Shown here: in pieces, positions 7,886 to 60,640 of the stretch
How the letters are laid out: each line of letters opens with the position of its first letter
Numbering within the stretch: position 1 is the stretch's first letter
Assembly (NCBI GenBank): GCA_964019135.1
Contig: CAXHSH010000614.1
Coordinates: 162,698 to 226,697 of the forward strand
DNA: 64,000 nt
Direction of reading: 5' to 3'
Source: Arenicola marina
Lineage: Eukaryota > Annelida > Polychaeta > Arenicolidae
Position numbers and translations under genes: made by a program
The notes under the pieces: model-generated
Databases searched by the model: none
The model's input: the letters and a program-made list of their open reading frames with translations, nothing else
What the model was told of the DNA's origin: nothing

Positions 7886-9145
7886 CCACTCATATTATGT
7901 GAGACATCCATGATATGTCTGCGTTATCACGTATAGCCAACATTCCAGGGACATTCCCTGACCCCAAAAAACTTTCAACAGCCTGTCTTACATATTGTTT
8001 TTTATCCCATTTCTGTGGATGAAGAGTAAAGCTACTGATGATATTCTGGCCCAATTTCCCTAATGTGTAACATTTGAACCAACTCAATAGCCGTGCATTG
8101 ATAAATAAAAACAACAGCTTAGATACCCAAATAGCTTACCCGTCCTTTCAGGAACAGGCCGGTCTTGTGTCACATTCAGCTCTTCACTTTCATCGCTGCT
8201 GGGCTCTGTGAAGCGAGATAAAAGTGTCCCATGCAAACATGGTGTAAAATTAATTCTTGAAAAACATCCATATGGTCTGCGTTCAATGCTTTATTGGGAG
8301 ATTTCAGAACACCGCTCCGCTAAACATTTTTAACGGTAAGCGCTCAGAGCACCTCTAATGTCAGGACACTCTCCGAATTTAACAAAGGCGACTCAAAATG
8401 AATAATGATGAATGGTCAGCATTTGGTCCAGCCTATCTTCAGTCAAAAAGACGCATCATATTGAGGACTTACCGGCTGACGCTTGGTCAGCGTCATGTGG
8501 CTGCGACACGGCGTCTACTTGGGTGGCTGGGTTGGTTTCTTGAAATTACATAAACATTCATAAACAGTTCAACCGATATCGGAGAGTGACATCACCACAG
8601 AAATGAATTTAACTTTCGTAATAAGGTATAACTTCAGACTTAACGATGGCACCCAGCGACTGGCGAAAATGGCTTTAACCACTTGTTAACCTTCCTTAGA
8701 ATAAAAAAATCTAATGTTCGACATAAATGGACTTACCATCATCATCTAACGAGACGGGGCTGGGAAGATCTAAAAGAAATTGACATAACACCACAATGAT
8801 TTGCCAAAAAATGGGTAGACTAACCTAGCTTTTAGCTGACTAGCTTGATAGCAGATTGTTTTTCGAAAACCAGAGGCAATTTTGCTACAAAATATTTTGT
8901 TCAAAAAAAAACCCTAGTTAGTCCTACTGCAGCGGGGGAAAAACCTAAAAAATGTACCCAGTAGTCATGTGACCCTCTTTAAGGGCTCAACATAATTAGT
9001 CAGCGAAAAACCAATATATTCGAATTATTGACGGATAATTGGAAGACCGCACGAAAATATTTTTTACGAGAAAATCATGGCAGTTGGCATATCTGCCAAA
9101 CCAAGAACCATCGTGCTCATTGTCAGGACTATTTCGCCACAGTAC

Positions 9146-9341
9146 CTTCTACTGTGATGTCATCAAGTTGCTTGCCGGCCATTCTCTTCAGACCTCCATT
9201 TTCCACAGTCAGCAACACCCGCGCAACCTTGGTTCGTTCCAATACAGAACTTTGTAGTCTGTACACGTCCGTGTGTATGTTGACATTATGTCCCATATGG
9301 TCCGCGACCATTTTCAACTCTGCGCCTGTCATATCCAGCAT
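9146..9341 (-). CDS. Locus 1 exon with His...Tyr catalytic block
   Basis: A 196-bp exon after TATTTAG and before AAG|GTACTG. It encodes MLDMTGAELKMVADHMGHNV and then NIHTDVYRLQSSVLERTKV, with Gly-His, a second His and a Tyr in the position of the recombinase nucleophile. It joins the 8737-8769 exon in phase 1 to give a clean ITVEDLPSP junction. Confidence 0.75.
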
Positions 9342-9580
9342 CTAAATAATTGATTAAAATTCATGTTTACTTCAACCTTATAGTGGTGACTTTATTAAAA
9401 AATATCATCGACAAACATCGTGCAGCATATCTCTAAACCCGCTCTTCGAGGACTCCCGCAACAAATGTTTGAGCGTTGATTTCAATGAAGAGAATATGCT
9501 TCTAAATCACTGACCCTGAATATGGGGCCGCAGAAGAACCAGTCCTTTCATGATACATAAGTAAGTGTTAATACTGATAC

Positions 9581-9706
9581 CTGGAAACCGTTGCCAGGTA
9601 TTTTCGGATTGATCGCGTGCGAATTCCTCTGGGGTTTTTCAGGCCAGGGCAGCTGTTGCAGACGTTGCGCATGGCCGCGCATCCATCCAGGGGTGTCTTG
9701 GTGAAT
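9581..9706 (-). CDS. Locus 1 exon with Arg-II box
   Basis: A 126-bp exon between TTGTAG and CAG|GTATCAG. In one frame it reads LDGCAAMRNVCNSCPGLKNP and then IRTRSIRKYLATVS. The R-x-x-R-K-x-x-A-T arrangement corresponds to the H/T-x-L-R-K-x-x-A-T box II of tyrosine recombinases. It leaves in phase 2, which does not fit the next exon. Confidence 0.65.
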
Positions 9707-9789
9707 CTACAACCCAAAATACGCGTGCAGTGATATTATTCTTCAAAATGTTGGAATAAACTTTGCGGATTACTATGCTTTAGTATTTT

Positions 9790-10560
9790 CCATCCCCAAA
9801 AAATGGGTGAAGATGTGTCGTCAGGAAGGACGAAAATTAGACTCTGTTATGTGTTTACATTTAGAAGAATTATTATCGATCAAAAAAGTATGCAACTATG
9901 TATATAGAAAGTTGGTTATTAGTCTGCAATTTAGTTGTAATAACGAGCGTAAGTGGGGCGAAATACTAGGCCCGACTATACTCAGAGATAAATGGTGCGT
10001 GATATATAAATTACCATATCTGGTAACCATTAATGAAAAGCTTCGGAGTTTTCAGTTTGCCATTATACACAAAATAGTTGTGACTAATGTATTTCTAAAG
10101 CGTTGGAACATTATAGAGAACAATTTATGCAACTGTTGTGAAAAACATCCGGTAACTTTAGACCATTTATTCGTGGAGTGTGTCGAAGTGAGAATACTGT
10201 GGACGAATTTGTATAACTGGTTACGCAATCAAGCTAATATTAGAGACATAACTATGTTTTCCGCAAAAGACATAATGTTAGGGGTTTTTAACGTAACCAA
10301 TGAAGATCTTCTAAATATAATTATATTAATAATCAAGAGATACATATATGTGGCCAGATGTACTGGCAAAAGACTTATATTAACCAGTTGTATAAGGGTT
10401 ATCAAGAGTTACTTTCGTTTAGAATACCATAATTCCAAAGACAATGAAAAACAGAAAAGCATGATTAAAAAATGGGTTAAATCCTTAATAGAATATTTTT
10501 GTAAAGTTGAATAGGTATCTATATATATTCTGGTGTTTAAGTGTTTAAGCGTTCAATGGG
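9790..10560 (+). mobile_element. L1/Tx1-like LINE, 3' end
   Basis: A 235-residue open frame (9807-10514) with the C-terminal signature of L1/Tx1 LINE ORF2: KWGEILGPTILRDKWCVIY, LRSFQFAIIHKIVVTNVFL and a C-C-H-C zinc motif in LCNCCEKHPVTLDHLFVEC, then a hydrophobic helical tail (IILIIKRYIYVARC). RT and endonuclease are absent, so this is a 5'-truncated insertion, the usual fate of LINEs. The frame is fully open, suggesting a recent insertion. It lies immediately upstream of the first visible exon of recombinase-like locus 1 and may have separated that locus from its 5' half. Confidence 0.85.
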
Positions 10561-15753: not shown

Positions 15754-15925
15754 TGTGGAATAACGAGGACGTTATGACTAAACCTGGCATTGAGCGTCAT
15801 GGCTACGCGTTGTAACGGATGTGGGGGGAGGAACTTTTGTCTTTTCCATCTTTGAAGGATGTTCTTGATTTGATATTAAATGATGTAAAAGTAGCGCCTT
15901 TCGTTGACTACTTTATCATTATACA
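15754..15925 (+). repeat. Gypsy 5' LTR
   Basis: 172 bp, starting tgtggaataacgagg and ending atcattataca. It matches the 3' LTR at all but three positions. Confidence 0.95.
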
Positions 15926-15938
15926 TGGCGCAGTCGGC
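15926..15938 (+). other. Gypsy primer-binding site
   Basis: TGGCGCAGTCGGC directly after the 5' LTR. The leading TGG fits pairing with a tRNA CCA end; the tRNA species was not determined. Confidence 0.7.
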
Positions 15939-16034
15939 ATAAGAAACGTCCACAGATTGTTCAGCACCCCCATCGGTCCTCTCGTCGCCATACACGTAAG
16001 CATCCGGGTCTGTTTTACGCACCCCACACACATC

Positions 16035-17756
16035 ATGGGCGATGAAGAGGAAGCCAACACTTCCTCGGGGACACCTGCTGCAACACCACCCCCCAACCCC
16101 ATTACCCTGACGGCCGATCAATTCACACAGCTACTCCAAACCCTGACGATTCAGCATACGCAACAGGAAAGAGCTACCACGCCCCCGGCACCCGGCTCCA
16201 CGTCTGTCAAACGCCCTGATCGTCCATCAGTAGACCTGGGCTGCTCTGAGTCATTCTGGGCTTTTTTCATCAACGAGTGGCAATTGTACAAGCGCAGGGC
16301 GAATCTACCGGCCTCAGCGGCGGAAGAGTTACGTGCGTGTTGCTCCCAGGACCTCAGGCTGGGGCTGTTCAACTACGTGGGCGCGGGCACCATAGACACG
16401 CTGTCCGAAGAAGCCCTCACACAAAACATTAAACGGCTCGCAGTTAAAGGCAAAAACCAATCGGTGCATCGCCAAGAATTCTATGCCCTACAGCAAGAGC
16501 CAGATTGCCCCGTCCAACAATTTGTCTCCAAACTTAAAGCCAATGCGGAGCACTGCAACTTCTCCTTCACATGCTGCAACCACGCTTGTGGCGTCGTCAA
16601 CAATTACTCACAGGAGATGGTTTCCGACCAGCTCACCGTAGGCCTGGTGGACAAAGACATCCAAGGAGAAATCCTGGCTAAATCGTCACAGTTGGGCTCT
16701 TTCCAAGAGAAGCTCGACCTCGTTCAAGCACTGGAAGACGGCAAGCGCGGGAAAGAACAACTCGGTGGGGATTCGACATTAGCTGCTCAACAATCCTCAT
16801 ACAAGAAGTCTAAAAAATCACGCGGCCTCCAGCAATACAAGAACAGGGAGGCACTGAAACCAGTCGGTTGTCCAGGATGTGGCAGCAAAGAACATGGCCG
16901 TGGCACTGATCACCCGCGCCACCTACACTGCCCGGCGCGGGACTCAATATGCGACCACTGCGGCATCAAGGCACACCTCGCGACTGTCTGCAGGAAGAAA
17001 GTGGATGCGTCACATCCGGATATCAAGAGCGATGTAAATGCTATCCCCTCCTCGTCCTCATGGATCTTATCCTTAAACACTCTCCAAGACCAGGCGTATA
17101 CCGCTGACAGCCTTCGCCAAAACTCTAAGGCCTGGCGTCGCGCTACCCACGTGTTGTCTCACTCCTCAAGACTCCACAAAACTATAGTCGTCCCACATAT
17201 GGAGTGGACATCAGAAGAAAACCGCTTCGTCCACAGGACGCCTCGATGCCTTCCCAAAGTAAAAGTGCAGCTACGTCCCATGGCCGATACTCACAAAGCT
17301 TACAATAAGCCCCTGTCATCGGCCGTACACGAAACAGAAGTCGAAGCCATTGCTGACACCGGCGCCCAAACGTGTGCATGCGGCCCTAATATTGCCCAGG
17401 CCATGGGCATCAAACCCTCTGAGCTGGTGCCCACCTCACACACCATCAATGGTGTGACTCAATCATCTGTGAGCATCAGAGGGGTATTCTACGCGGCCAT
17501 CACGTTGAGCGGACGAACCACACGTCAACAGATCTACGTCGCCGACAACGTCGCGGGAATGTTCATCTCAGAGAAGGCCCTCAGGGAACTGGGAGCCATA
17601 TCGGAAACCTTCCCTCACGCAGCACCCTCAACCATTGCGGCTTCCAACACCAGCGGTGATTGCCCGACGCGCGAGGCACCTCCTCCTAAACCGGACAAGC
17701 TGCCTTTCCCACCACATCCAGACAACATCACAAAAACTAGAGAACTGGCTTCTTAA
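16035..17756 (+). CDS. Gypsy Gag and aspartic protease block
   Basis: Open frame starting MGDEEEANTSSGTPAATPPP. The N-terminal half is a capsid-like helical region (SFWAFFINEWQLYKRRANLP; QEFYALQQEPDCPVQQFVSK), followed by Cys/His-rich knuckle-like sequence (CPGCGSKEHGRG; CDHCGIKAHLATVC) and a retropepsin-like site EAIADTGAQTCACG. The frame is open further 5' to 15819, inside the LTR, but the Met at 16035 after the primer-binding site is the natural start. The end overlaps the pol block, as is common where the family uses frameshift expression. Fossil element. Confidence 0.88.
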   Translation: MGDEEEANTSSGTPAATPPPNPITLTADQFTQLLQTLTIQHTQQERATTPPAPGSTSVKRPDRPSVDLGCSESFWAFFINEWQLYKRRANLPASAAEELRACCSQDLRLGLFNYVGAGTIDTLSEEALTQNIKRLAVKGKNQSVHRQEFYALQQEPDCPVQQFVSKLKANAEHCNFSFTCCNHACGVVNNYSQEMVSDQLTVGLVDKDIQGEILAKSSQLGSFQEKLDLVQALEDGKRGKEQLGGDSTLAAQQSSYKKSKKSRGLQQYKNREALKPVGCPGCGSKEHGRGTDHPRHLHCPARDSICDHCGIKAHLATVCRKKVDASHPDIKSDVNAIPSSSSWILSLNTLQDQAYTADSLRQNSKAWRRATHVLSHSSRLHKTIVVPHMEWTSEENRFVHRTPRCLPKVKVQLRPMADTHKAYNKPLSSAVHETEVEAIADTGAQTCACGPNIAQAMGIKPSELVPTSHTINGVTQSSVSIRGVFYAAITLSGRTTRQQIYVADNVAGMFISEKALRELGAISETFPHAAPSTIAASNTSGDCPTREAPPPKPDKLPFPPHPDNITKTRELAS

Positions 17757-19074
17757 ACGATACGCAAGCAGCGCGTTCAACGTATGCGAGCATCAGCCCT
17801 TGCCCCATATGACTGGAGCCCCACTAGAGATCCACTTCCGCCCAGACGCCAAACCTATGGCTCACCATACACCCATACCAGTGCCACACCACTGGAAAGA
17901 AAAAGTAAAGGCTGACCTTGACAGGGACGTCCGCCTTGGGATCATTGAAGCGGTGCCTCCTGGCACCCCTACCATCTGGTGCTCGCGCATGGTCGTCGTA
18001 CCTAAGAAGGATGGCTCACCTCGTCGCACAGTTGATCTACAGGCTCTCAACACAGCCACCTACAGGCTCACCTATCACACACCGGCTCCTTTCCACCAGG
18101 TCTCTCAGGTCCCACGCCACTACTGGATGACGACTCTGGACTGCTGGAACGGCTACCACTCGATGCGCCTCAACCCCTCTGCTAGCGCCGCCACCACTTT
18201 CATCACGGAATGGGGCCGCTATCGATACCTACGTGCTCCACAAGGATCTCATGTGGCAGGGGACGGCTACACCAAGTGTTATGACTACATCACAACCGAC
18301 GTAGAACGTAAAACTAAGTGTATCGATGACAGCCTCCTCTGGGACAGTTCCATTGAAAACGCCTTCTGGCACACCGTCGATTACATCGCCCTATGTGCAA
18401 AGAACGGTGTGGTATTCAACCCTTCAAAATTTAAGTTCTCCAGGCCAGAGATAGAATTCGCCGGATTCACCGTCACGCAACATGGCGTCCAACCATCGCC
18501 GGCAATCCTTGATGCAATTCGCAACTTCCCCACGCCTTCGAATATCACCGACGCTAGATCCTGGTTCGGCCTGGTAAACCAAGTTGCCTATAGCCTGTTT
18601 ACAACTGAGGCAATGCAGCCATTTCGCGAGCTCCTGACACCAGGAAAATGGTACTGGGATAGCGCTCTGGACGCATGTTTCGAGAAGAGCAGGCAGGAGA
18701 TCATCAAATTGGTCGAAAAAGGTGTACAAACCTTCGAGCGCAATCGCTACACTTGCCTGTCCACGGACTGGTCCAAGAAAGGCCTGGGGTTCACACTCAC
18801 TCAGAAGCACTGCCGCTGCCCCTTGACGGATGCTCCGCTCTGTTGCAACGACGGATGGCGGCTAATTTTCGCCGGTTCACGGTTCACCACGGACGCTGAG
18901 AGCCGCTACGCCCCTATTGAGGGTGAGGCACTTGCCGTTGCCTACGGCCTGCAGAAGTGTCGTATGTTTGTTCTGGGTTGCAAGGACCTGCTCATCGCCA
19001 CTGATCATAAACCTCTCGTCAAAATTCTTGGTGATTCGAGCCTAGATTCCATCAAAAACCCCAGGCTATTCTGA
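17635..19074 (+). CDS. Gypsy reverse transcriptase / RNase H block
   Basis: RT motifs in order: MVVVPKKDGSPRRTVDLQAL, TLDCWNGYHSMRL, GRYRYLRAPQG and the CIDDSLLW box. RNase H follows with STDWSKKGLGFTLTQ, RYAPIEGEALAVAYGL and TDHKPLVKIL. The order and the PIEGEALA signature place it in the metazoan Gypsy group. Fossil element. Confidence 0.9.
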   Translation: MRLPTPAVIARRARHLLLNRTSCLSHHIQTTSQKLENWLLKRYASSAFNVCEHQPLPHMTGAPLEIHFRPDAKPMAHHTPIPVPHHWKEKVKADLDRDVRLGIIEAVPPGTPTIWCSRMVVVPKKDGSPRRTVDLQALNTATYRLTYHTPAPFHQVSQVPRHYWMTTLDCWNGYHSMRLNPSASAATTFITEWGRYRYLRAPQGSHVAGDGYTKCYDYITTDVERKTKCIDDSLLWDSSIENAFWHTVDYIALCAKNGVVFNPSKFKFSRPEIEFAGFTVTQHGVQPSPAILDAIRNFPTPSNITDARSWFGLVNQVAYSLFTTEAMQPFRELLTPGKWYWDSALDACFEKSRQEIIKLVEKGVQTFERNRYTCLSTDWSKKGLGFTLTQKHCRCPLTDAPLCCNDGWRLIFAGSRFTTDAESRYAPIEGEALAVAYGLQKCRMFVLGCKDLLIATDHKPLVKILGDSSLDSIKNPRLF

Positions 19075-19310
19075 CTAAAGGAGAAAACCCTACCGTTCGC
19101 CTTCGACATCAAACACATTCCTGGCGCCTCACAGAAGAGCGCAGATGCCTGCTCCCGCCTCCCAACAGGGAACTCGCGTGCCGATGCCCTCCGCGATGCA
19201 GCCTCACCTACTGATTGCCTTGAGTCCTCGCCAGTCAGTGTGACTCATCCATCCTAGCTTCACTAAACGCCATTCATGATACAGATGACGTCGTCGCCTC
19301 TGCTATCACT

Positions 19311-20852
19311 TTGGGTCGCGTCAGAGAGGCCTCCATCTCCGATGCCACGATGACCTGCCTCTCGACCACCATCACCAACGGTTTCCCCAACTCAGAGAAT
19401 GAGCTACCAGAGGAGATCCGCCCATACTGGCGCTACCGGGACCACCTCAGCTCTTACGAAGGCATATGCACCTACAATGATCGTGTCCTCATCCCGCCGT
19501 CCCTCAGAAAGGAGGCCCTCGACGGCCTGCACGCCGCCCACCAGGGTGTCGCCGGCATGAAAGCCAGGGCCGCCCGCAGCGTGTTCTGGCCCGGGATGAA
19601 CTCTGCCATTTCCTCCCGCAGGGCACAATGCCACTCCTGCAACAAGATCGCCCCATCACAGGCCCCAGAAGCTATGAGGCCATCGCCTGCCCCAGCTTAT
19701 CCGTTCGAATTCGCTGTCGCTGATTACTTTGACTTACAAGGCCATCGCTACCTAGCCTACGCCGATCGGTACACAGGATGGTTGTCAATCGCCAAATGCG
19801 ACTCTCTACATACCGATTCAAAATCCCTGTGCCGAGAACTCCGCACGCTGTTTGGGATATACGGCGCACCTGCAGAATTAGCCACAGATGGAGGACAGCC
19901 ATTTCCCTCCCATCACGTCCAGCGATTCCTCCAGCAGTGGGGCGTGACATGGCGCCTCTCTTCTGCTTACTATGCCCAGAGCAACGGTAGAGCCGAGGCC
20001 GCGGTCAAGACGGCGAAGCGCCTCTTGATGTCCAACATGTCAGCAAACGGCGGGCTCGACACCGACCGCTTCGCCAGAGCCCTCCTACAATACCGGAACA
20101 CACCCCTGCCGGGTCTAGAGCTGTCACCAGCTCAGCTGCTCTACGGGCGCACACTACGCGACCATATACCCAATCTTCCCAGCCTGCTTCGGATCCGCAA
20201 GGAATGGCTAACCCTGGCCGAGGACCGAGAACGAGCCCTCGCCCACCGTCACATCAAGGCCATCGAACGCTACAACGAACACACCAACCTCCTGCCACCG
20301 CTTACGGTTGGAGACTTTGTATCCGTCCAGAACCAGACCGGCAATCATCCTCGGCGCTGGGACAAAACCGGCCGCATTGTTGAGTCACGTGACCACCATC
20401 AGTATGTCGTTCGCTTGGACGGATCGGGCAGGTGCACCTTACGCAACCGCCGCTTTCTACGAAAGCACACACCCTTCGATGCGCGACCTACAATCCTACC
20501 CCTTACCCCGGCTCCGTCATCACCCATGGTCACCGACCCGCAGGTCGCTCCTCTCGGGCAGAGGAATCCCGAGGACTCGAGGGTAGTCTGCCCTGAGACA
20601 GTCCTCGAGGGGCCGCCTCCGGCCGTGCCGGTTGTCAATGACCTCGTGCCCACCAAGACTGTGCCGGCGTCGCCCAAGGCCGACACACCTGCTACCACCT
20701 CCCCACCCCAGCCGCCCCGCCGCAGCACTCGAGAGCGCCGTCCACGCCGCGCCCTCTCTCCATCTCTCCGTGGGTCCTTCCACGACTACAGCTGCCGCAT
20801 CGGCCCTAGCACTTCGGGCCTCCCCGTTGGGGGAAGGGGGGATGTGGAATAA
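19311..20852 (+). CDS. Gypsy integrase block
   Basis: An HHCC zinc domain (LHAAHQGVAGMKARAARS...CHSCNK) is followed by the catalytic core: VADYFDLQGHRYLAYADRY (first Asp), LATDGGQPF (second Asp) and SAYYAQSNGRAEAAVKTAKR (Glu). A C-terminal SH3-like region lies near LPPLTVGDFVSVQNQTGNHP. The Pro/Ser-rich tail ends at the polypurine tract. No chromodomain is seen. Fossil element. Confidence 0.9.
   Translation: MGRVREASISDATMTCLSTTITNGFPNSENELPEEIRPYWRYRDHLSSYEGICTYNDRVLIPPSLRKEALDGLHAAHQGVAGMKARAARSVFWPGMNSAISSRRAQCHSCNKIAPSQAPEAMRPSPAPAYPFEFAVADYFDLQGHRYLAYADRYTGWLSIAKCDSLHTDSKSLCRELRTLFGIYGAPAELATDGGQPFPSHHVQRFLQQWGVTWRLSSAYYAQSNGRAEAAVKTAKRLLMSNMSANGGLDTDRFARALLQYRNTPLPGLELSPAQLLYGRTLRDHIPNLPSLLRIRKEWLTLAEDRERALAHRHIKAIERYNEHTNLLPPLTVGDFVSVQNQTGNHPRRWDKTGRIVESRDHHQYVVRLDGSGRCTLRNRRFLRKHTPFDARPTILPLTPAPSSPMVTDPQVAPLGQRNPEDSRVVCPETVLEGPPPAVPVVNDLVPTKTVPASPKADTPATTSPPQPPRRSTRERRPRRALSPSLRGSFHDYSCRIGPSTSGLPVGGRGDVE
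20828..20842 (+). other. Gypsy polypurine tract
   Basis: gggggaaggggggа-type purine run immediately before the 3' LTR, the usual plus-strand priming site of LTR retroelements. Confidence 0.8.
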
Positions 20853-24358: not shown

Positions 24359-24599
24359 TTTTCTATGCAACATGCAAGTGTTCAGTTCGTAAATTTGTTT
24401 CTTTTAAAACGACCTGATATTATTCGCAACTGCGCATAATTCCGATTTGTGAGATTAGATCAGCTAAAGGAAGTCATCAACGTTTTTTGCAGAGAAATCT
24501 TTAGAATATAACTTAGGCGTATTTACTATGGTGTGTTCAAAGCGACTTCAGTTGATGCAAATTAGCATAGTTTAAATCCAAATGTCTCTAAAAATTAAG

Positions 24600-31120: not shown

Positions 31121-31383
31121 ATTGTTGCCCTGTTTAATACCATACAGCCGCTCTGACCCTGTCCATAGGACAGTAATCGAGTTGTTTAAATTTTTACAAC
31201 ATGGCATGCACATCCCTATTATCGCCCGCCAAAAAATAAACTAAACCCTGGAGCGAAATAGGGTTGCGGTACCCGTGTGTCTCTATGACCTGTCGAAACA
31301 TGACCAGTGCCTTGTTCTTTTAACAGATGAATAATGCAAATTTGCCACATGTTAAACGAATACTCACTTAACTTGTCCCACCA

Positions 31384-39720: not shown

Positions 39721-40504
39721 AAAAAACATAACTGATATTCCCATACTGCACCTCATAAGGGTTTCTATATACCTTCACGAAACCTCGCATTGTAATTTAT
39801 CTAAGAAAATATCTAATTACGACATATGCTGACTTATAAGACGGGGGTCTGACCTCGAAACTATGGAAAGCCAAAGTGGAATTTAATCGACTGATGAATG
39901 CAACTGATCGTGAGACCTTGCGGAGAGGAGACAGTATGAACATGATCAAGTTCGAGATTGCGGGTAGGTGTCAGACGCCTTACCACGTGTTTTAAATTAT
40001 GAAAAAGAAAGAAAACAGTTACATACGTTAGTACGTGCGTGCGCGTCCGTGGTCCCTCCTTTGCAATATTACATTTCAATAATGAACGTGTGTTTTAGAT
40101 CTTTTCTAGCTGACCATTAAACACATGGAGTTTTACCGAATTGTACTACAGGATGTCCTGTCATTTTGTGGTAAAAGGATGAAATTTGGCTCACATGTTA
40201 GGAATTCATGTCTAATCGAATTTAGTTAAGTGTCGAGTCAGATTTAAAAGGTGGACAATGTCACCAATTATAAGCGATATCTTGGACTCACAATAAGAAG
40301 GATAAAACTGTTATTTTGATGTCTGTCCATAGGTTTTTGTGTAAGCAAAGGTAAAATAAGTCCTCGCTGGATATTCAAGAACAACGCATGAGCCATTTCC
40401 CTATATAAGGACACTGCACCTCTTAGTTTTTAAGATATTGAGCATGTTTGCTGGCCTTTGTCCGCCATCGTGGAACTGGAGGATGCGTTGCACCTAGATA
40501 CACA

Positions 40505-40735
40505 CAAATATCTTCTGTTTAATTTAGCGACCCCGAAAACCTATGCATAAACATAAAATATTAGTGCGATCGTCGATTTGCGAGATATTGAGCTTTTTTG
40601 GGGTAGTTTTGCCCGTCTAAAGCCGCCAGGGGTAAAGTCGACTTGTCATTAGCTAAATTTAAATACAAGGATATTAAGGACAAGTGTGCTAACTTTCATG
40701 CTTTTACTACCAAATGCACAACTCGACATAATTTG
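40505..40735. repeat. Dispersed repeat, copy B
   Basis: Shares with 4710-4940 the blocks accccgaaaacc, gcgagatat, gctaaattta, acaaggatat and aacaagtgtgc-like sequence, then aactttcatgctttta, in the same order. No coding frame and no terminal repeats were seen. Confidence 0.65.
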
Positions 40736-41189
40736 TCGTTTAGCCGCTGAACTATCACGGAATATAGGCAATGTTTCCGTTTCGTCAACACAATTATAAC
40801 CAGTAATGACGACGAGGACAACATCAGCTTCGGAAAATATTTGCCAAAATATCCTCCTTCCGGGCAAACAAATTCAATGTCTCTTTATTCCTAATCCCTG
40901 TTTCATATGCTATGTGAAATCCAAATTATTATCCAATTTACTTCACATTGTAATATGTCTTTAAATAATACGACATATGTCCAACTCATGTAAAGATGTG
41001 TATACAACAATTTTACGGTTAATTTCTTAAAGATATGAAAATTCATTTTGGCTTGCCATAGCATCTGCACGACAACTGGCGCTCGACCAATCACGGAGGC
41101 TTAAAAATTACTAGTTACCGGCCTAGTATGATGCGAGCAGCTCTAGGCCGGTTCCCAGCCTAGGGTCTGTGCCGCGGTAACCGCGCCAC

Positions 41190-42379: not shown

Positions 42380-42526
42380 CTGGCCAGGGTTCAACCGTCG
42401 GTGGACCCGCACTGCCACCGCATCCTTCAGAAGCGGGTTGTAATGGCGTTGCTGAGTTGACACGGAGTGTGTCGTGGCTGTTGCGAGGTCTGCCATCTCC
42501 TCAGGCGTGCAGCCTTCTTTGTGGCT
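42380..42526 (-). CDS. Locus 2 His/Tyr catalytic exon
   Basis: Exactly 49 codons between TTACAG and CAG|GTAAGA: SHKEGCTPEEMADLATATTH, then SVSTQQRHYNPLLKDAVAVR. The T-x-x-R-H-Y stretch places a Tyr where the recombinase nucleophile is expected, with a His nine residues earlier. Phase 0 at both ends. Confidence 0.82.
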
Positions 42527-42645
42527 CTGTAATGAATAATAGCAGACATAATGTATAAGTCCAAGCAATATTGGTCAATGAATACATTAAATAGTAATAA
42601 CATAACAATTTTGGAACTCTGCGCAATATATTATAATGTATGTAC

Positions 42646-43569
42646 CTGAATGACTCTTGTCTTTCGGACGAGGCTCGTTGTGGGGAGGATGGCCTTGCCT
42701 GTTGAGTCGCTGGGGAGTTCTATCCCCTGGTCTCGGAATGCTACCCGGAGGACCTTGGCAGGCCAGTTGCTCGGCATTTGCACCCCGAGGACGGTGCAAA
42801 AGACCCACGTCTGTTTGTCCGGCTGGCGCTCGGGGACTACACGTTTGCGGATGCCTATGTAGTCCTCGAGGAATGCATAATAGACTGGACCCAGGACCAA
42901 ACGGGCAGGCCCGTGCTCCTGGGCGGTCTTGTGGTCTTCTATTTTTAATATGCATTCCTCGCCCATGAAGACTCGGGCGTTTCAATCCCGCATATTGAAA
43001 TTGGTCACGGGTCCGGCGCGCTGTGCGTTGGAAATCAGAATGTTGAGGGCGACGTAGTCCCTCACCGTACAAAAGTCCGCAGTCGTGGGGCAATCCTGCG
43101 ACTTTGCCATCCCCACCAGAGGGGGTAACGTCTTGTGGATCTGGAAGTCCTTGTAATTCGTTATATGTGCCTGCATGACATCGGCGGCCTTTACGGTGGC
43201 CTCCTCGCGGCTCAGCCTGGCGGTGGAACGGCGGCCCCTGGTGGCGTGGACCCACCGGGAAATTCTGGAGGTGGCCTCCTCACAGAAGGTGGCACTCAGT
43301 ATTCTGCCGCCCTCCAGTTTCAGCATTGCAAATAAATGCTGAAGAGCGGTCAGATAAACTACAAGGTTGGACGCCGAGTGCTCGTCTTGAATTTTCTTGA
43401 TAAGGCCGCTGACCTTGACCACATCCGGGTAATTAATTAAATGTTTGGCCTTGCCGCCCAGTGAATTAATTAGACGCTCTACGGCGTGTCTGTACTGTTG
43501 TCCACTCCGCACACTCAACGAGCCGCCGTCGCACGACAGCAGCCAGGCCCACTGCGTCTGTGCGCACAC
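42646..43569 (-). CDS. Locus 2 core-binding and catalytic-domain exon
   Basis: N-terminal part CAQTQWAWLLSCDGGSLSVR and SGQQYRHAVERLINSLGGKA matches the SAM-like core-binding domain, with aligned counterparts in locus 3. The C-terminal part holds ILKIEDHKTAQEHGPARLVL and PTTSLVRKTRVIQ just before the CAG|GTACAT donor. An in-frame TGA lies between the two halves. The exon would end in phase 0, matching the 42380-42526 exon. Confidence 0.75.
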
Positions 43570-43744: not shown

Positions 43745-44576
43745 CGCCATCTTGTCTTCTTTGGACTTTTTCATGTGGGCGGCGCCTGGCGTCTCGTCGC
43801 GCTCGGTCAACTGACATGTGATGGTAGTAGATCAAGTGGCGTCGGTACTTGACGACTCTGGCAGCGCAGTGGCGGCATTCGATGAGACGCCGTTGCCTAC
43901 GGGCGTACGTGACCTTCACCGCCTCCTGTTTACAAAGCGTCTGGGCGTTCTGCTTGTCCAATTTGTGGTAGACTCGCAGGTGTCTGGTGACGTCCTGCAT
44001 AAGCTGGTTACACCCGGGCATCGGGCACGGCTTTTGGGGCCGGCACGCCTTTGGGGCGTTCTTTGTCCAAAGCTCCTTCTTTTCTGTCGTCTCCGGCGAT
44101 GGCGTCCGCGACGAGTCCCGTCTCTCGCCTTGGCCCACTGGACGTCCAGCCTCGGGACGTCCAGCACCAGGGGCCGCGCAGCATGACGAACTCGTCGCGG
44201 TTCCTTCTCGAGCCGGTGACGACCTGTCACTTGCGGCCTTGGGGTGGCCCTTGAACGGCCGGTCACGTGGGGCCTCGGCAGACGTCGCTCCCACGCTCCT
44301 GTCACGTGGCTCACGGTCGGGGTGGCCACTGGACGGCCGGTCACGTGGGGCCTCGGCAGAGGTCGCTCCCACGCTCCTGTCACGTGGCTCACGGTCGGGG
44401 TGGCCACTGGACGGCCGGTCACGTGGGGCCTCGGCAGAGGTCGCTCCCACGCTCCTGTCACGTGGCTCACGGTCGGGGTGGCCACTGGACGGCCGGTCAC
44501 GTGGGGCCTCGGCAGAGGTCACTCCCACGCTCCTGTCACGTCGTCTACCCGTTGGGGGCTTCTTCGTCCTGGCCAC
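43745..44576 (-). CDS. Locus 2 segment with C2H2 zinc fingers
   Basis: Encodes four Arg/Asp/Pro-rich 26-residue repeats, a Ser/Pro/Thr linker, then two C2H2-type fingers: CPMPGCNQLMQDVTRHLRVYH and CRHCAARVVKYRRHLIYYH. The fingers are 26 residues apart and are followed by a basic stretch. Fingers of this kind would bind DNA, RNA or protein and could target the recombinase domain downstream. The frame into the following acidic stretch (DEDEDEEERQED) is shifted. Confidence 0.68.
44223..44548. repeat. 78-bp tandem repeat with CACGTG E-boxes
   Basis: About four copies of a 78-bp unit; gtcacgtggctcacggtcgg starts at 44301, 44379 and 44457, with a partial at 44535. Each unit carries two CACGTG motifs (gtcacgtggc and gtcacgtggg). 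78 is a multiple of three, so the frame encodes a 26-residue repeat in locus 2. Confidence 0.92.
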
Positions 44577-44829
44577 AGCCCATGGGGTTCCTGAAGGATG
44601 GGAGGGCGCTGGTCTCTCCGGTGTCTTCGGCGTCCCACCTTAAGTCCTGAAAGCATCCGGCATCCAACTTAGCCCTCAGTGTCATGGGTTTGGTAGGGTC
44701 GTACACCGGTTCTGTCTGTTCTTGTGGACCCACGTAGTCTGGAGGGGCATCGTCCGACGACATGTCCGAGGAGTGGACGGCCCGCTTGGGCGGAAGCCAC
44801 TCCTCGTCCTCGGTGGAGTGTTCAATTGA

Positions 44830-45540
44830 CGGTCAGTCTGGAAAGAACCATTAAATTGTAAGCATTAAAAATTGTACATATTATATTTTAGAACATATAA
44901 TCTTAAGTAATTATATAAAGGCGAGAAAGACGTGCTTAAATGCCAAAGTACGTAACCCAAAATAAAAATAAACGCGCCAAGGCACGAGTCAAGTCCTGGG
45001 CTATCCCCAGGTCGATCTCGTGCTAGGGCCGCGTCTCATCATTACCTAACACAACACTTAACTACCCGCCTCAAGTCACGGGTTAGGGTTTGGGATGGTG
45101 GGGTGAGGGTGTGGGGTGATATAGGTGCGGGGTAGTGGGGGAGGGGTGTTAACTTTTGAATCCACCGCACAAAGACATGACGTCCCAGATCGGCCCCGGC
45201 GTGCCGGGTTCGGCTCTTGTCTGACCATGTTGAGTTATTCACGTGCATGGTAACATACACAGTGACTCAGGGCATGGAGACAGGAGAAGTGAAATGAACA
45301 CGCCGATGGAGGCTCCCTTATGTGCTTTGCGGCGACCATTACTTATGGTGTTGGCTAGTAACTTTGCCACCGTTATATGTCCCCAAAATGTGTTTGCGCG
45401 ATATTTATGCAACGGGTTCAGGCAATAGCAACATGACCAGGCAATTGTATGTTTAGCAACGGTTGTGGCAAGTTTATTGAGGACTGTAAAGCAAGAATAA
45501 TTCAATTAAAAATTCAAGACATTATATTTATCATGTGGAG
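44830..45540. other. No gene seen
   Basis: Spacer upstream of locus 2. It contains a G-rich patch at 45070-45150 (ggtgaggtggg-like) and no convincing exon. Confidence 0.5.
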
Positions 45541-50635: not shown

Positions 50636-51064
50636 TTCCTCTATTATCGCCCGCTCGTGTGTCCGCACTGTGATCAGATTACGCTGTCCATTTCATTCAC
50701 TTGATGACCAAATCTTTTCTTATTCTATATATTTCCATGAAATAAATACTCAACCCAATACACAATACATTTCAACATTGTATTACATATGACGTACATT
50801 TTCCTTAACATTTAGTGCACATTACATTCCAACATTTTGTCACAATATATATATATGTATATATATATACAACAATTATATAAATCAACTATACCCTGAA
50901 ATATAATTGCATCATGCAAAGCGGTTGTCCTGTGAATTGAAATGTGTATAACATGTATAAATCAACTATTTGAATATCACATAATGGCATCATTTGATAT
51001 TTACACCTTTAAATATAGCAGTTTCTTGTTCCAGACAAATTGATAGAGACCTGTGTGTAATATG
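50636..51064. other. AT-rich spacer with TA microsatellite
   Basis: TA-rich microsatellite at ~50846-50870. Otherwise AT-rich with no gene seen; lies downstream (3') of the NAIF1-like gene. Confidence 0.55.
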
Positions 51065-52672
51065 TCACACCTTAGCCACGATCGCCAGTGCACTGGTGGT
51101 CGCCGCCTTCTCGTCCTCCTCCTGCTGCTCCTCCTCTTCCTGGCTCTCCTGCAAGCACTTTTGCAGCACGCTCCATGCTTGAGGTTGTGAGCCGAGTGAG
51201 GATGGGGCTGGAGCGACTGGGCACCTCTGGGCGCCACTGACCCCCAGGGTTAACATGCCTCTGTTGTCTGTATATATAAAGACATAATTTTATTATAAAT
51301 AGTCGGGGTTTTCGGTGAAGAAGATATTTAACATTAATTTAGTGAACTTTAGTAGTAGTAGTTGTTTATCACTTGAAAAAGCGTCAAATAATTGTCGCCT
51401 TACATAAGCCAAAACATAGTTACTAACCGATTTGGATTGGCAAGTCAAGGACTTGCACTGCCCCTGTTGGGGCCACTTCCTCCGCGGTGTCGACGCCCTC
51501 GGCCAATCCATCGAGCACCGGTCTCCCTTCTAGGCCGGCAAGCACCAGCTCCTCTGCCGCAGTGAGGGGTGGCTCCTTCCTGCCACCGCCGGTTTTGGGG
51601 TGCTTCGCCGCATCGGCTCTTTTTTCCGCTGCAGTGTATACCATGATAATGTCATTACTATCACATGCATAATTATTGGGGGGAAAAGGGCGGTTAAGGC
51701 ACTGACAAAGTTTCGTTGTTAAGCAAACTCGTAAACAGCTCTTGAATAAAACATTGAAACATTTAATGTGTGTACACTTATGAATAAGCATCAATCATTA
51801 GACATGCACTGCAAACATACCTGATTGTAAAATGTTTTTGTATTTTTTCTTCACTTCCTCGCCGCTTCTCTTTACCTGAGTGTAGTTACTACAAGGCAAA
51901 AACAATACAATCTTAAACACAAGTCTATCTAACACGTCAGTTTTAAATAAAGTACTTAGATCTATATATGCCATGCCTACTCTCCTTCACCACATTCCTA
52001 AACAAAATATACATGTATTTATATATTTGTATGCTGATTTATGCAGATGAATGACTGTCGGAGTGCCCACCGCCCCCCTCCGCTTCCTTCCCTAATAACT
52101 CCTTACACACCTTTGGTCTGTCAGCTGGTGGCCGTACGCAAACGACAAGGGCGGTTCACAGTTTAAAAAGAGGGAAGGGTACACGGGTGGGAGAACTCTC
52201 ACAGACTGACGGGTGGGGAGACTCCCCACGAAAGGGAGTGGAGGAGGGAGGGGGGGGGGGTGCAAGGGGTTATGGTATATTTGTGCCACTAGCATTTGGG
52301 GTCATGCATTTTGGGTGAAACATTTTCAAGGGTCCAGAACCGAAATTCACGCCCAAAATGCAGAAATGTAGTGACCCCCTGTCATCATATGGGAAAAGGC
52401 GCGATATTACGTCAGTGATTGTTGTCTGTTGAGTGCATGCATAGAAGATTACAACCTTGAACTTGAACTTGAAATGTCAACTTTGTTGCTTTGCCATTGC
52501 ATACTACTTACGCGTTCAAGGCGTCTGCAACCTCTTTCCAGGCTGCCTGCTTGTGTTTTTTCGTCAGGCCTGGCGAAAATTTTCCCTCCAACACCTCTTT
52601 CCTCTTCTGCACTTCTGTTACTAATAACAGCTCTTCGTTTACGGTAAAATTCGGTTTCCGTGCCACAGCCAT
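51065..52672 (-). CDS. NAIF1-like Myb/SANT-domain protein, four exons, intact
   Basis: Exons 52512-52672, 51821-51888, 51428-51628 and 51065-51267 sum to 633 bp, exactly 210 codons plus stop, with GT/AG borders and matching phases (2, 1, 1). Residues ~5-75 form a Myb/SANT-like (trihelix-type) DNA-binding domain: RKPNFTVNEELLLVTEVQKR, KKHKQAAWKEVADALNANYT and RSGEEVKKKYKNILQS. It is followed by the family's KTGGG motif (HPKTGGGRKEPPLTAAEELV) and LEGRPVLDGLAEGVDT. The C-terminus is Pro-rich, then a Glu-rich coiled coil (LQESQEEEEQQEEDEKAATT). NAIF1-like proteins are nuclear, and the fold is shared with Harbinger accessory proteins, so transposon ancestry is possible. The start is the first Met and fits the domain boundary. 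No recognisable transposase lies next to it. Confidence 0.87.
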
Positions 52673-52699
52673 CGTTGAAAGAGAAGTTGCTTATATTGC

Positions 52700-52900
52700 A
52701 GACGACAGTCGCACAAACACGGAATCCCCTCAGGGGATTCCCCGCGCAACCCATAGCAACGGCTTAGAACGAGGTTAGCCGACTACGCTTAGTCGTCTAC
52801 GGTAAGCCGGCTAGCCAAATCATTCGTGAAACGGGTTTGTCGGCAAGAATCTTAGACGGCTTACCGTAGACGGCTAAGGAGAGCTAGACGGCTAAGAGCT
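52700..52900 (-). promoter_or_regulatory. Candidate promoter of NAIF1-like gene with κB palindrome and inverted repeat
   Basis: About 50 bp upstream of the start codon is ggaatcccctcaggggattcc (52721-52741), a palindrome containing GGGGATTCCCC, an NF-κB-type consensus. CCATAGCAAC next to it (52749-52758) matches an RFX half-site. Further upstream, cttagtcgtctacggtaagc (from ~52786) is the near-perfect inverse of cggcttaccgtagacggctaag (~52857-52878), a ~22-bp-arm inverted repeat with one mismatch. Function is inferred from motif and position only. Confidence 0.45.
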
Positions 52901-53512
52901 GACAGATGTACGTGAAATAGGCCACTGGTTGTCTTTGGGGACTCTAGCAGTCCAGCCAGCCGGCTTACACCACGTGGCATCAATCCGAACACGACAATTG
53001 TCAAAAACATCCTATACATATCCCAACCTGTTTCGGGCAGTTTATGCAGTATCTGGCCTCGGGTACTTGCGAGGCCAGGGTTATCTTGGTCTTCAGAACA
53101 ATCTGTGACGTAGCTTTCTTATTGAATAGGCATATTCAAAACTACCCACTTTAGCATACCAGCTTGGACGCCATTACATTAGTACGCTGCGTAAAAGGAA
53201 AAGGAGGCTGGTGTCTAATCGAAAACGCACTTTGTGAAAAAGCCCACCGGATCCAAATGCATTTACTGAACTTTTGATTACGGAACTTGTATCTTAAGTT
53301 GCGGTTATATTGGTCAGGGCGATAAGCACTATCAACGAATTGATGATAGTGTCAGTAAAAGTTATGTCTGTCTCTTTTCCACAAGTTACTACATCTATAT
53401 TGTTTTTTGCAACCTAACTTACAGTAACCAGTCATTAGCATACTTCAATGTTTGGCACACAAACTAATTAATAACAAGACCATTGAAATAGTAAAAGAAA
53501 ATCTATGCGGGA

Positions 53513-57861: not shown

Positions 57862-58149
57862 CTAGTATCTCCCAAGCTTCTGACGAATGATGCTCCGCAG
57901 CTTGTCCGCTATCTGTTGCATCGTGAATCTTCTCAGCATTCCTTCTAGAGTTGGGTGCTGCGACAGTTTCTCGCGAATGACACTGGGGGAGACGGATCCA
58001 TGTCGAATGTCCTCCTTGAAGATTCGTCGCAGGAGATCTTCTCCAGTCTTGGTGTACCCGGCCCGCCGGGCGTGGCTTCTCTCCGTCATCCTGGAGACGC
58101 CTGACACAGTGATGGTGGTCGGCCCCACAGACGACTATTCGGAAACATC
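57862..58149 (-). CDS. Locus 3 last exon, helical tail
   Basis: After TTGTTTCCAG. Encodes MTERSHARRAGYTKTGEDLL, RRIFKEDIRHGSVSPSVIRE, KLSQHPTLEGMLRRFTMQQI and ADKLRSIIRQKLGRY, stop. A TAG lies near its start, so the reading may begin at a Met within the exon or the exon is inactive. The helical, basic content suggests a DNA- or protein-binding tail analogous to the last exon of locus 1. Confidence 0.65.
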
Positions 58150-58884: not shown

Positions 58885-59001
58885 ATGACGGACACGAGCC
58901 ATGGCAGAAGGGCAGGGTGCACCTGCGAAGACGAAGAGTTGATGCGGCGAGTCTTCAAGAGGGACATTCGACAAGACACCGTCGCGCCATTCGCCAAATA
59001 A
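58885..59001 (+). pseudogene. Inverted partial copy of the locus 3 last exon, inside an intron
   Basis: Plus-strand frame MTDTSHGRRAGCTCEDEELM, RRVFKRDIRQDTVAPFAK, stop. It aligns with MTERSHARRAGYTKTGEDLL, RRIFKEDIRHGSVSPSVI of the minus-strand last exon (57862-58149). It therefore lies antisense between the two duplicated linker exons. It stops after ~38 residues and lacks the tail. Confidence 0.72.
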
Positions 59002-59043
59002 AGAGAAGACGTGTCATGGTGTCCTTCAGTAAGGTATACTCAC

Positions 59044-59157
59044 CTTGGTTAACGGGCTTCCGGGCGCTGACGTCTCGGCCAGGGCAGGCTCTCTTGGCGA
59101 GGGCCCGGCGTCCTGGGACGTCTCCGGGGTAGTTATTCGGTATTGTTTATCAGACGA
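59044..59157 (-). CDS. Locus 3 linker exon, duplicate copy 1
   Basis: 114 bp between TTTTTTCAG and AAG|GTGAGT: SSDKQYRITTPETSQDAGPS and then PREPALAETSAPGSPLTK. Clearly related to 58757-58862. Confidence 0.72.
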
Positions 59158-59491
59158 CTGAAAAAATTAATACTGAGACTGTATAGTATGGAATACCTTA
59201 ATAAAATAATTTTGTTTCCTGATGGTTGTAATTGTCCAACAAGCAAAGTGGTAAACATGTGTCATTTTCTCACAACATGGTACACTCACAGTAAAGGGCG
59301 TACAGGTGTGCGCACCGTGCCTTCTCTCGCTCCACCGTGCATAGGCCGGCCCGGCCTGAGTCCACGTCTGAAAAAATGAACAAGTTGAAAATATCGTCGC
59401 TACGTGTGCGTTATTGTGTAATTGTTTAATGTATTCAAATATACTTTGTGGTAAAACGTCACCATAGGAATATAAACTGACCGAAGGCTCA

Positions 59492-59591
59492 TTAATCATG
59501 CGGCCGGGGCATGTAGTGTCTCTCCTGGGTCTTTTTTCCGTGTGTCATGAAGTCGTCGAGGTCGGCCATTTCGCCATCCGTGGGTTCTGAG
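59492..59591 (-). CDS. Locus 3 His/Tyr exon
   Basis: After GATTGCAG: SEPTDGEMADLDDFMTHGKK and TQERHYMPRPHD, then a stop. It matches locus 2's EEMADLATATTHSVSTQQRH with the Tyr conserved. Entry phase does not fit the core exon as delimited. Confidence 0.65.
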
Positions 59592-59737
59592 CTGCAATCA
59601 TATGGGGAAAAGACATTTCTATAACATCTGCATATCAACATTGTACGAAAATTCATATAATAGATTACGCATTAGCAAGAAAAGGCACTATGTAGTAATA
59701 AATGCAATACATTTTGTGGATAACATAATTTGCATAC

Positions 59738-60640
59738 CTGTATAGCCCTCGCCTTGCGGATCAGCGTTGGTGTAATGCTAATCTTCCGTCCGTCTCCATC
59801 CAGTGGCAGGTCAAAGCCTTCCTCCTCGAACGCCTTCTGTAGAATCATAGAGGGCCAATTGGTGGCCACGTGACACCCATCAGGGCTGCAAAGGAGTTCT
59901 TCTCTCTGCAACCCTGGCGGCAGGACCTTGGCGCGTACTGCTGCGTACGCCTTCAGCCGCGTGGCGTAGATGCCGGCGACGCGCAGTCGGGCTGGGCCGT
60001 AGCTGGCGGCCGTCTTATGTTTCGGTACCTTCAGCATGAGGGCATCGCCATGCTTTACCGCTGCCTCTAGTTCCTTGACGGTGAGATTGCTGTCCGTTTG
60101 TCATATAAAGGCATAGACCCGCATAGTTTCTTATTTTGCCGAAGTCCTTCTTGTCAGGCATTGGCGCCGCCAAGGCCTTCTAAAAGACCTCGTCAATGCT
60201 GTCGTGGATCTCCCAACGATCGAAAGCGGCGAACACGTCAATGACGTACATCGCAGCCTGAGCCAAGCTGTCCTCCTGGCCGCAGGTGTACGTGGAGGCC
60301 GTTTTGCGTTGTGAATAAATCCAACGCCCAACACGCTCGATGGACACGGTGCAATAGGATTTGGTCAGGATGGTCGGCGCATAGCTGCGATAAAAGCGCA
60401 GGAGGTGTTGTAAAGGTGTGAGGTGAACTTTCAGGTTGGAATGGGAGTTCCCTTGCCGTTTCATGGAATTGATCAAGCCACCCCGGGCGCTGAGGGATGT
60501 AAAGTTATCCAGGCTATGCGCCTTGCCGCCCAGGGTGACCAATATCCTTGTGGCTGCCAATCCGTACTGATCTGCCGACTTATGCGACAGAGATCCCCCA
60601 TCCAGCGGAACTGTTTTATTATATCCCTAATGGGCGTCGT
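59738..60640 (-). CDS. Locus 3 core-binding and catalytic region
   Basis: Aligns along its length with locus 2: GGSLSHKSADQYGLAATRIL against GGSLSVRSGQQYRHAVERLI, DFGKIRNYAGLCLYMTNGQQ against DFCTVRDYVALNILISNAQR, and HKTAASYGPARL against HKTAQEHGPARL. It ends at ATACAG|GTATGC, the same phase-0 position as in locus 2. Divergence between the loci is large, so this is an old duplication or two independent family members. Confidence 0.72.

What the first reader, a model, noticed from the sequence alone, without database searches (positions are those of the whole stretch)
7890..60640. Three related intron-bearing tyrosine-recombinase-like loci in one 64-kb window
Loci at 7.9-9.7, 41.6-44.8 and 57.9-60.6 kb, all minus strand, encode parts of the same fold: a core-binding domain (LGGKA...), a Lys motif (HKTA...GPARL), an Arg-II box (V/L-I-R-K) and a His...Tyr block (QQRHY, QERHY, MGHN...VYR). 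Loci 2 and 3 align over the whole core; locus 1 is more distant. Locus 2 adds two C2H2 fingers. They have spliced linkers and no RT, so they are not DIRS/Ngaro retroelements, and they do not look like the DUF3504 Crypton-derived genes I know. I think they belong to a poorly named animal gene family that may derive from a recombinase-bearing transposon.
Basis: partly seen in the sequence, partly recalled or inferred. Interest (0 to 1): 0.78.

Follow-up and report, generated by a model that had tools for sequence, protein, structure and literature searches.

The report
Dead copies of split animal recombinases
The three loci are broken copies of two little-described animal gene families that encode DNA cut-and-rejoin enzymes (tyrosine recombinases) with zinc-finger-like motifs; some other copies in the same genome keep the whole active site, which an intron cuts in two.

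Summary
Confirmed with corrections. Loci 2 and 3 belong to one family (A; at least 25 loci in this 867-Mb animal genome); locus 1 is the last two exons of another (B; 21 matches). Both are tyrosine recombinases by profile comparison with 77 XerD/Cre/lambda-Int-like proteins: A, E 1e-7, score 57.5 against at most 23.1 in 100 column shuffles; B, E 8e-7. Aligned family-A members keep Arg-Lys-Arg-His-Tyr where those parts could be read. Family A reads: acidic repeats, two C2H2-like fingers, core-binding domain, catalytic domain, C-terminal module. A short phase-0 intron separates the second Arg from His/Tyr; family B has one two codons further on. dN/dS is 0.14-0.26 in 25 of 30 comparable pairs. 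None of 58 DUF3504 matches lies on these loci. All three window copies are broken. The recent duplications around loci 2 and 3 run past the genes (segmental or allelic), so no transposition is shown. A transposon origin with gene-like, clustered expansion fits best; a low-copy Crypton-like transposon is a close rival. Structure prediction on window-only rows was too poor to use. Nine literature searches found no description of such a family. New variant of a known kind.

The parts
43809..44042 (-). locus 2: pair of C2H2-like fingers (CPMPGC..H..H and CRHC..H..H)
   Evidence: tblastn with a finger-pair query drawn from other members, 58% identity; Pfam zf-C2H2_2 only at E 0.049, below cut-off
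44241..44541 (-). locus 2: 78-bp minisatellite (3.9 copies, 97%) in the N-terminal coding region
   Evidence: Tandem Repeats Finder
44545..44832 (-). locus 2: N-terminal acidic segment (..DYVGPQEQ..), part of the first large exon in intact relatives
   Evidence: ORF; same order in the 733-aa open frame of the C3:17.458 Mb copy
42646..43545 (-). locus 2: core-binding domain and catalytic domain up to Arg-II; Arg-I 43018-43020, Lys 42928-42930, Arg-II 42664-42666; in-frame TGA at 42982-42984
   Evidence: profile match of the family to recombinases
42527..42645 (-). locus 2: 119-nt phase-0 intron (GTACAT..TTACAG) between Arg-II and His/Tyr
   Evidence: GT..CAG at the corresponding place and phase in 14 of the 19 copies for which one search set a His/Tyr exon (12 of them 119 or 125 nt)
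42380..42526 (-). locus 2: His/Tyr exon (TTHSVSTQQRHY); His 42467-42469, Tyr 42440-42442; donor GTAAGA follows
59738..60605 (-). locus 3: core-binding and catalytic exon, broken by a stop and by a frameshift at the Arg-I box; Lys 60014-60016, Arg-II 59756-59758
   Evidence: 95% identical region on C8
59495..59590 (-). locus 3: His/Tyr block (FMTHGKKTQERHY); His 59540-59542, Tyr 59513-59515; followed by stops; splice acceptor not clear
57865..58131 (-). locus 3: C-terminal module exon (RRAGYT..LLRRIF..IADKLR)
   Evidence: 15 matches in the genome: the query itself, 11 beside other family-A loci on the same strand, one elsewhere (C182), two short inverted fragments inside locus 3 and its C8 copy; six aligned
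9580..9717 (-). locus 1 (family B): Arg-II exon (RSIRKYLATV), Arg 9604-9606; homology to its C399 copy ends at 9756
9144..9341 (-). locus 1 (family B): His/Tyr exon (ADHMGHNVNIHTDVYR), His 9288-9290, Tyr 9261-9263

Best explanation
The loci are decayed members of two multi-exon families of tyrosine-recombinase genes that descend from recombinase-bearing mobile DNA and now spread mainly by tandem and segmental duplication. Mechanism: the paired fingers and the core-binding domain grip a DNA site; the Arg-Lys-Arg-His active site activates the scissile phosphate; the Tyr attacks it to give a covalent 3'-phosphotyrosine, and strands are exchanged. Shown here: the domain order, the conserved catalytic residues, the recombinase relationship by profile, the splice signals, the purifying selection and the copy structure. 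Inferred: splicing itself, DNA binding and catalysis in intact copies, and the mobile origin. Also inferred: because the intron lies between the second Arg and His/Tyr, and translation from the donor stops inside the intron in 20 of 21 copies (in the other just past it, in another frame), unspliced message would make a DNA-binding protein without the nucleophile, a built-in inhibitor like the intron-retention repressor of the P element (that comparison is recalled). The three window copies themselves are dead.
For: Family A against 77 known recombinases: hhalign probability 94%, E 9.8e-8, score 57.5; 100 column shuffles at most 23.1, reversed 20.8; Arg-I in register. Family B: probability 92%, E 7.8e-7, score 54.0 against at most 18.1 in 40 shuffles, with Arg-I, Lys and Arg-II in register. 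In 15 aligned family-A rows (of 25 loci, chosen because the core could be read): Lys 15 of 15, Arg-II 13 of 13, His 12 of 12 and Tyr 12 of 12 rows that have the letter; Arg-I 14 of 14, leaving out one row (C2) whose first piece I had taken in a wrong frame. dN/dS 0.14-0.26 in 25 of the 30 pairs with pS below 0.6, out of 105 pairs of 15 copies. C-terminal exon kept beside 11 further loci. Clusters on C3, C20, C49 and C613. The duplications around loci 2 and 3 extend past the genes. Stops after the donor (intron lengths).
Against: No expression data. AlphaFold2 on window-only rows gave pLDDT 42 and Foldseek found no recombinase. In the main family-A alignment the Lys falls opposite a gap and Arg-II, His and Tyr lie outside the aligned range; aligned alone, that last part is not significant. 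A profile of eight members finds no recombinase among solved structures at E 10 or better; single members reach Pfam Phage_integrase only at E 0.057; none of the 55 genome matches to PF00589 at E 0.001 lies on these loci. The His of the HxxR box is missing in both families (Thr or Ser). Most copies are broken: 6 of the 23 set out have an uninterrupted core exon up to the donor, one of them with a changed start (C3:54 Mb is open too if its 5' end is left out). Decay of this kind also fits a dying transposon.
Confidence: 0.5

Rival explanations
1. Low-copy Crypton-like DNA transposons: each copy is, or was, a mobile element whose recombinase excises and integrates it; the introns are part of the transposon gene, and clusters arise from local insertion.
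For: Complete active site kept under purifying selection, unlike DUF3504 genes, which lack most of the tetrad (PMC3212892 abstract). Many dead copies, singletons on several chromosomes, and two intronless family-B members, L072 and L073. One recent interchromosomal pair, C3:17.465 and C20:13.787 Mb, with dS 0.03.
Against: No shared element ends among the copies compared. The recent duplications around loci 2 and 3 continue into flanking DNA. Several exons per gene by splice signals. Copies are concentrated in clusters and unplaced contigs, unlike the DUF3504-type matches of the same genome.
Confidence: 0.38
2. Members of the Crypton/DUF3504 host genes (KCTD1, ZMYM, QRICH1 type).
For: Same enzyme superfamily; DUF3504-type matches abound in this genome. 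Family B against DUF3504-like proteins of this genome scores 25.9, shuffled maximum 22.2.
Against: 0 of 58 DUF3504 matches fall on the loci; family A against DUF3504-like proteins scores 19.0, shuffled maximum 19.9; the catalytic residues are kept.
Confidence: 0.03
3. Recombinase part of DIRS/Ngaro retroelements.
For: Such elements carry tyrosine recombinases; one DIRS/Ngaro-like fragment (L006; label from recall) was seen in the genome.
Against: No reverse transcriptase frame was seen among the family-A frames printed (part's output was cut, one strand only); in the family-B frames printed the only one is a LINE-like frame beside L068. The recombinase exons carry splice signals.
Confidence: 0.03
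4. Chance resemblance or an unrelated fold.
For: Poor predicted structure and no Foldseek hit; no solved recombinase at E 10 or better; no PF00589 match on these loci.
Against: Profile comparison with shuffle controls, found separately for family A (Arg-I in register) and family B (Arg-I, Lys and Arg-II in register).
Confidence: 0.03

Closest known systems
Crypton transposons (CryptonA, animals; Kojima and Jurka 2011, PMC3212892: abstract, sections 5 and 8 and passages read)
   Same: [quoted passage not shown] reported there in a mollusc (Lottia).
   Different: Animal Cryptons are described there without a C-terminal domain, and the text does not contain 'C2H2'. Family A has two finger-like motifs, a C-terminal module and an intron-split active site; no mobility is shown here.
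DUF3504 genes (KCTD1, KIAA1958, ZMYM2-4, QRICH1, WOC)
   Same: Recombinase-derived animal genes, some with extra DNA-binding domains and introns.
   Different: They lack most of the catalytic tetrad (PMC3212892 abstract); families A and B keep it, and no PF12012 match lies on their loci.
CryptonV (Kapitonov and Jurka 2012, Repbase Reports; known here only from passages that cite it in PMC8869645)
   Same: Animal (cnidarian) recombinase transposon lineage.
   Different: Cannot be compared: its sequences are not held. Some families are reported to insert in microsatellites. Family B or its intronless members could prove related.
XerD, Cre and lambda Int
   Same: Core-binding domain plus catalytic domain; profile alignment in register at Arg-I for family A and at Arg-I, Lys and Arg-II for family B.
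   Different: Eukaryotic, with splice signals and finger-like motifs; Thr or Ser instead of His in the HxxR box.
Uncharacterised metazoan proteins resembling L073 (two C2H2 motifs, ..LRKHIA.., ..LGHDIRVHR.YYR..)
   Same: From memory, many unnamed fish and cnidarian database proteins look like family B.
   Different: Recalled only; no animal protein database was available to test it.

Membership tests
tyrosine recombinase superfamily | Arg-I, Lys, Arg-II, His/Trp and Tyr in order | tested here: met
   family A: every one of 15 aligned rows that has the letter, one row's Arg-I set aside; family B: Arg-I, Lys and Arg-II by alignment with XerD-like proteins, His/Tyr by motif and spacing. The window copy of locus 3 has lost Arg-I.
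tyrosine recombinase superfamily | significant profile similarity with shuffle controls | tested here: met
tyrosine recombinase superfamily | curated Pfam domain above cut-off (PF00589 or PF02899) | tested here: not met
   best E 0.057 and 0.066; no PF00589 genome match on these loci. The Pfam cut-off is an annotation threshold; the deeper profile test above is met.
tyrosine recombinase superfamily | predicted or solved fold | tested here: inconclusive
   pLDDT 41.8, Foldseek uninformative
tyrosine recombinase superfamily | catalytic activity | not testable with these tools
   needs protein
Crypton transposons | recombinase gene without reverse transcriptase | tested here: met
   none seen among frames printed for family-A loci, about 1.5 kb on each side of the core (part cut)
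Crypton transposons | discrete element moved to new sites, with definable ends | tested here: inconclusive
Crypton transposons | groups with known Cryptons in a tree | not testable with these tools
   Repbase sequences not held; family A against DUF3504-like proteins of this genome gives no signal
DUF3504 genes | match to PF12012 | tested here: not met
   0 of 58 genome matches on these loci
DUF3504 genes | loss of most catalytic residues | tested here: not met
DIRS/Ngaro retroelements | linked reverse transcriptase/RNase H | tested here: not met
   within the frames printed for the fetched stretches only

The most novel reading that the evidence does not exclude
A host-owned multigene family of catalytically complete tyrosine recombinases in an animal, whose activity is switched by splicing (splicing joins Arg-II to His/Tyr; retention makes an inhibitor) and which carries out programmed site-specific DNA rearrangement or elimination. 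Its concentration in unplaced contigs could reflect germline-limited or rearranging DNA.
Probability: 0.08. Interest if true: 0.92.

Novelty: new variant of a known kind. Interest (0 to 1): 0.52.

Why it matters
The best described recombinase-derived animal genes (DUF3504) have lost most of their active site. A clustered, apparently spliced animal family that keeps the whole active site under purifying selection raises a testable question: do animals own working tyrosine recombinases outside transposons, and is catalysis gated by splicing? It also shows how to build profiles for a family that Pfam misses.

Tried and rejected
Pfam, NCBIfam and PHROGs scans gave nothing above cut-off or of clear meaning. 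An eight-row profile against solved structures gave only a chance hit, and an early comparison of two thin alignments was insignificant; deeper profiles were needed. AlphaFold2 with three window rows and Foldseek were uninformative. Scans of viral contigs for families A and B and of prokaryote genomes for family B found no relative. Tandem repeats around L072, L073, L020 and window 40-63 kb showed no microsatellite that would suggest targeting; L073 does have a 63-bp tandem repeat just upstream of its frame and short GGA-rich runs, and a satellite abuts or interrupts the C4 and C20:13.795 Mb copies, so the test is weak. Element ends were sought by comparing copies and none was shared. I considered C336 as an alternative haplotype of C8: window 52.9-62.4 kb is collinear with C8:6.643-6.656 Mb apart from about 2.5 kb extra in C8, but locus 2 matches C260 instead, so C336 is not a simple haplotig of C8.
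Full report
What was checked. The window is C336:162698-226697 of an 867-Mb assembly in 762 contigs. Its mitochondrial COI reads best with AGA as Ser and TGA as Trp, so it is an invertebrate animal; by eye it looks spiralian, which is recall and not tested.

Locus 2 and its family. A search with the locus-2 core found 27 matches, which I count as 25 loci because two loci gave two rows each; the Arg-II exon gave a parallel list of 27 rows. Such counts are lower bounds and may include alternative haplotypes. Copies form clusters: C20:13.785-13.802 Mb, C3:17.458-17.488 Mb, four loci on C613 and four on C49. Locus 3 is one of the 25. The best preserved copies read, in one open frame of 733 (C3:17.458 Mb) or about 790 residues (C49:71 kb): an acidic N-terminus, two C2H2-like fingers, the core-binding domain and the catalytic domain up to Arg-II. 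A donor GT follows the residues RK(T/S)RVIQ. One search set out 23 copies and a His/Tyr exon for 19 of them; in 14 of the 19 I read GT..CAG at the corresponding place and phase, 12 of them 119 or 125 nt long. In the other five, locus 3 among them, the acceptor is unclear or the region is deleted; in a further copy (C613:365 kb) a deletion has fused the His/Tyr block to the core. A last exon with a helical-looking module follows. With the locus-3 exon as query there are 15 matches: itself, 11 beside other family-A loci on the same strand, one elsewhere (C182), and two short inverted fragments within locus 3 and its C8 copy.

Locus 1 is another family. Its His/Tyr exon has 21 matches, among them two intronless open frames, L072 (774 aa) and L073 (693 aa), each with finger-like motifs. 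A search with the recombinase part of L073 gave 40 matches, the next best at 37% identity, and shows the spliced members exon by exon. The gene of which locus 1 is the end is more complete on C399; homology with the window stops at 9756. Family B also has an intron between Arg-II and His/Tyr in phase 0, eight residues after the Arg, against six in family A. The distance from Arg-II to His is 26 residues in both, and from His to Tyr 9 in both (read).

Is it a tyrosine recombinase? Single sequences reach Pfam only marginally: PF02899 at E 0.066, PF00589 at E 0.057, and none of the 55 genome matches to PF00589 at E 0.001 lies on these loci. I therefore built a reference profile of 77 recombinases: XerD, lambda Int, Cre and relatives from viral contigs, kept from 85 candidates by frame length, with the six catalytic columns conserved. 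Fifteen family-A members (of 25 loci) against it give probability 94.3, E 9.8e-8, score 57.5; 100 column-shuffled versions give at most 23.1 (median 13.9) and the reversed version 20.8. One of the fifteen rows (C2) had its first piece in a wrong frame, which can only weaken the match. Arg-I is in register. The Lys falls opposite a gap, and the aligned range stops before Arg-II. The catalytic half alone gives probability 91.3, the core-binding half alone only 13.5, and the last 77 columns alone (Arg-II to Tyr) are not significant (score 10.6), although Arg-II and His fall in register there. Family B (8 members) gives probability 91.7, E 7.8e-7, score 54.0 against at most 18.1 in 40 shuffles, with Arg-I, Lys and Arg-II in register. 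A positive control, Crypton/DUF3504-like proteins of this genome (up to five loci), gives 92.9. Families A and B against each other score 33.1 (shuffled maximum 24.0), A against the DUF3504-like set 19.0 (19.9), B against it 25.9 (22.2). Against the reading: no recombinase among solved structures at E 10 or better with an eight-row profile; AlphaFold2 with only three window rows reached pLDDT 41.8, and Foldseek found nothing of use. The order of helices and strands in that poor model looks as expected, but I give it no weight.

Constraint and decay. Among 15 family-A core exons, 30 of 105 pairs have pS below 0.6 (only these were printed): 25 have dN/dS 0.14-0.26, four have 0.35-0.48, and one, a recent pair with a broken copy, 1.23. 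All three window copies are broken, as given in the observation check. The nearest copies of loci 2 and 3, on C260 and C8, are broken too. Thus purifying selection acted on the family, but not lately on these copies.

Mobile element or gene? Several exons, clusters and the lack of a reverse transcriptase frame among those printed look gene-like. Locus 3 and DNA 90-98% identical on C8 continue from 52.9 to 62.4 kb of the window apart from about 2.5 kb extra in C8. Locus 2 and C260 share 5.2 kb at 94% that runs past the coding part on the 5' side. Locus 1 and C399 share 2.1 kb at 96%, to the end of what was fetched on one side. These are segmental or allelic copies as far as seen, not transpositions. 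On the other side, DUF3504 genes have lost most of the tetrad (PMC3212892, abstract) while these keep it; many copies are dead; and one recent pair lies on two chromosomes. I give about equal weight to a transposon-derived gene family and a low-copy transposon, with a slight lean to the former.

Location. 13 of 25 family-A loci and 13 of 21 family-B matches lie on contigs numbered above 20 (counted). From contig lengths and furthest hits, 18 large contigs hold at least 807 of 867 Mb, so all others hold at most about 7%. Of 58 DUF3504 matches 2 lie on such contigs, and of 55 PF00589 matches 5. Treated as independent this is very unlikely to be chance (P about 2e-9 and 1e-10 against 7%, and 7e-7 for family A against DUF3504). 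Copies are clustered and some may be alternative haplotypes, so the P values overstate it.

Intron and a possible switch. In 21 copies where the donor could be read, the frame meets a stop 4 to 53 codons after it: in 20 inside the intron (4 to 26 codons), in the C6 copy only past the 119-nt intron and in another frame. Retention would give fingers and core without His/Tyr. That this serves as an inhibitor, as in the P element (recalled), is a proposal, not a result; shared ancestry and AT-rich introns explain the stops equally well.

Literature. Nine searches of the open PMC library listed no paper whose title or abstract start describes an animal recombinase family with C2H2 fingers and an intron-split active site. 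Subscription journals and Repbase Reports are mostly not held. Read: PMC3212892 (abstract, sections 5 and 8, passages), PMC3537659 (passages), PMC8869645 (passages). The others were seen only in search listings. CryptonV remains an untested candidate relative.

Limits. Exon joins are inferred from splice signals, not from transcripts. Some copies were joined from pieces as amino acids for one profile, and the queries were mosaics. No expression, no fold and no activity is shown.

Noticed in passing
243-3254 (+): 1003-aa open frame of BEL/Pao-like gag-protease-RT type (by eye).
   Followed up: no
15816-20852 (+): Ty3/Gypsy-like gag and pol frames, nearly continuous (by eye).
   Followed up: no
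22674-24403 (-): Broken pogo/Tigger-like DDE transposase with a CENP-B-like N-terminus (by eye), beside a short repeat that reads GPVAAGM.
   Followed up: no
39800-41163: End of a high-copy repeat; 38 other places at 92-98% over all or part of it in one search, which scores only 40 candidates.
   Followed up: partly
50844-52928: About 2.1-kb repeat with several 97-98% copies elsewhere and sharp ends.
   Followed up: partly
60715-62062: Dispersed repeat with an internal inverted stretch; copies often occur in pairs about 5.5 kb apart on C1, C3 and C17, as if terminal repeats of a larger element. It holds a 126-bp tandem repeat at 61020-61632.
   Followed up: partly
29300-31130: Related repeats in both orientations that read as LGHRAKLGNVYGGKPP-type translations.
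   Followed up: no
58885-59031 (+): Partial copy of the C-terminal module in the opposite orientation between the exons of locus 3 (49% identity); the C8 copy has one too.
   Followed up: partly
L072 and L073: Two intronless family-B open frames (774 and 693 aa) beside spliced relatives: possible ancestral, retrocopied or still mobile forms. L073 has no close second copy; L072 was not searched itself.
   Followed up: partly
unplaced contigs C49, C225, C244, C399, C613 and others: Families A and B are concentrated on unplaced contigs, some holding both, unlike DUF3504-type matches.
   Followed up: partly
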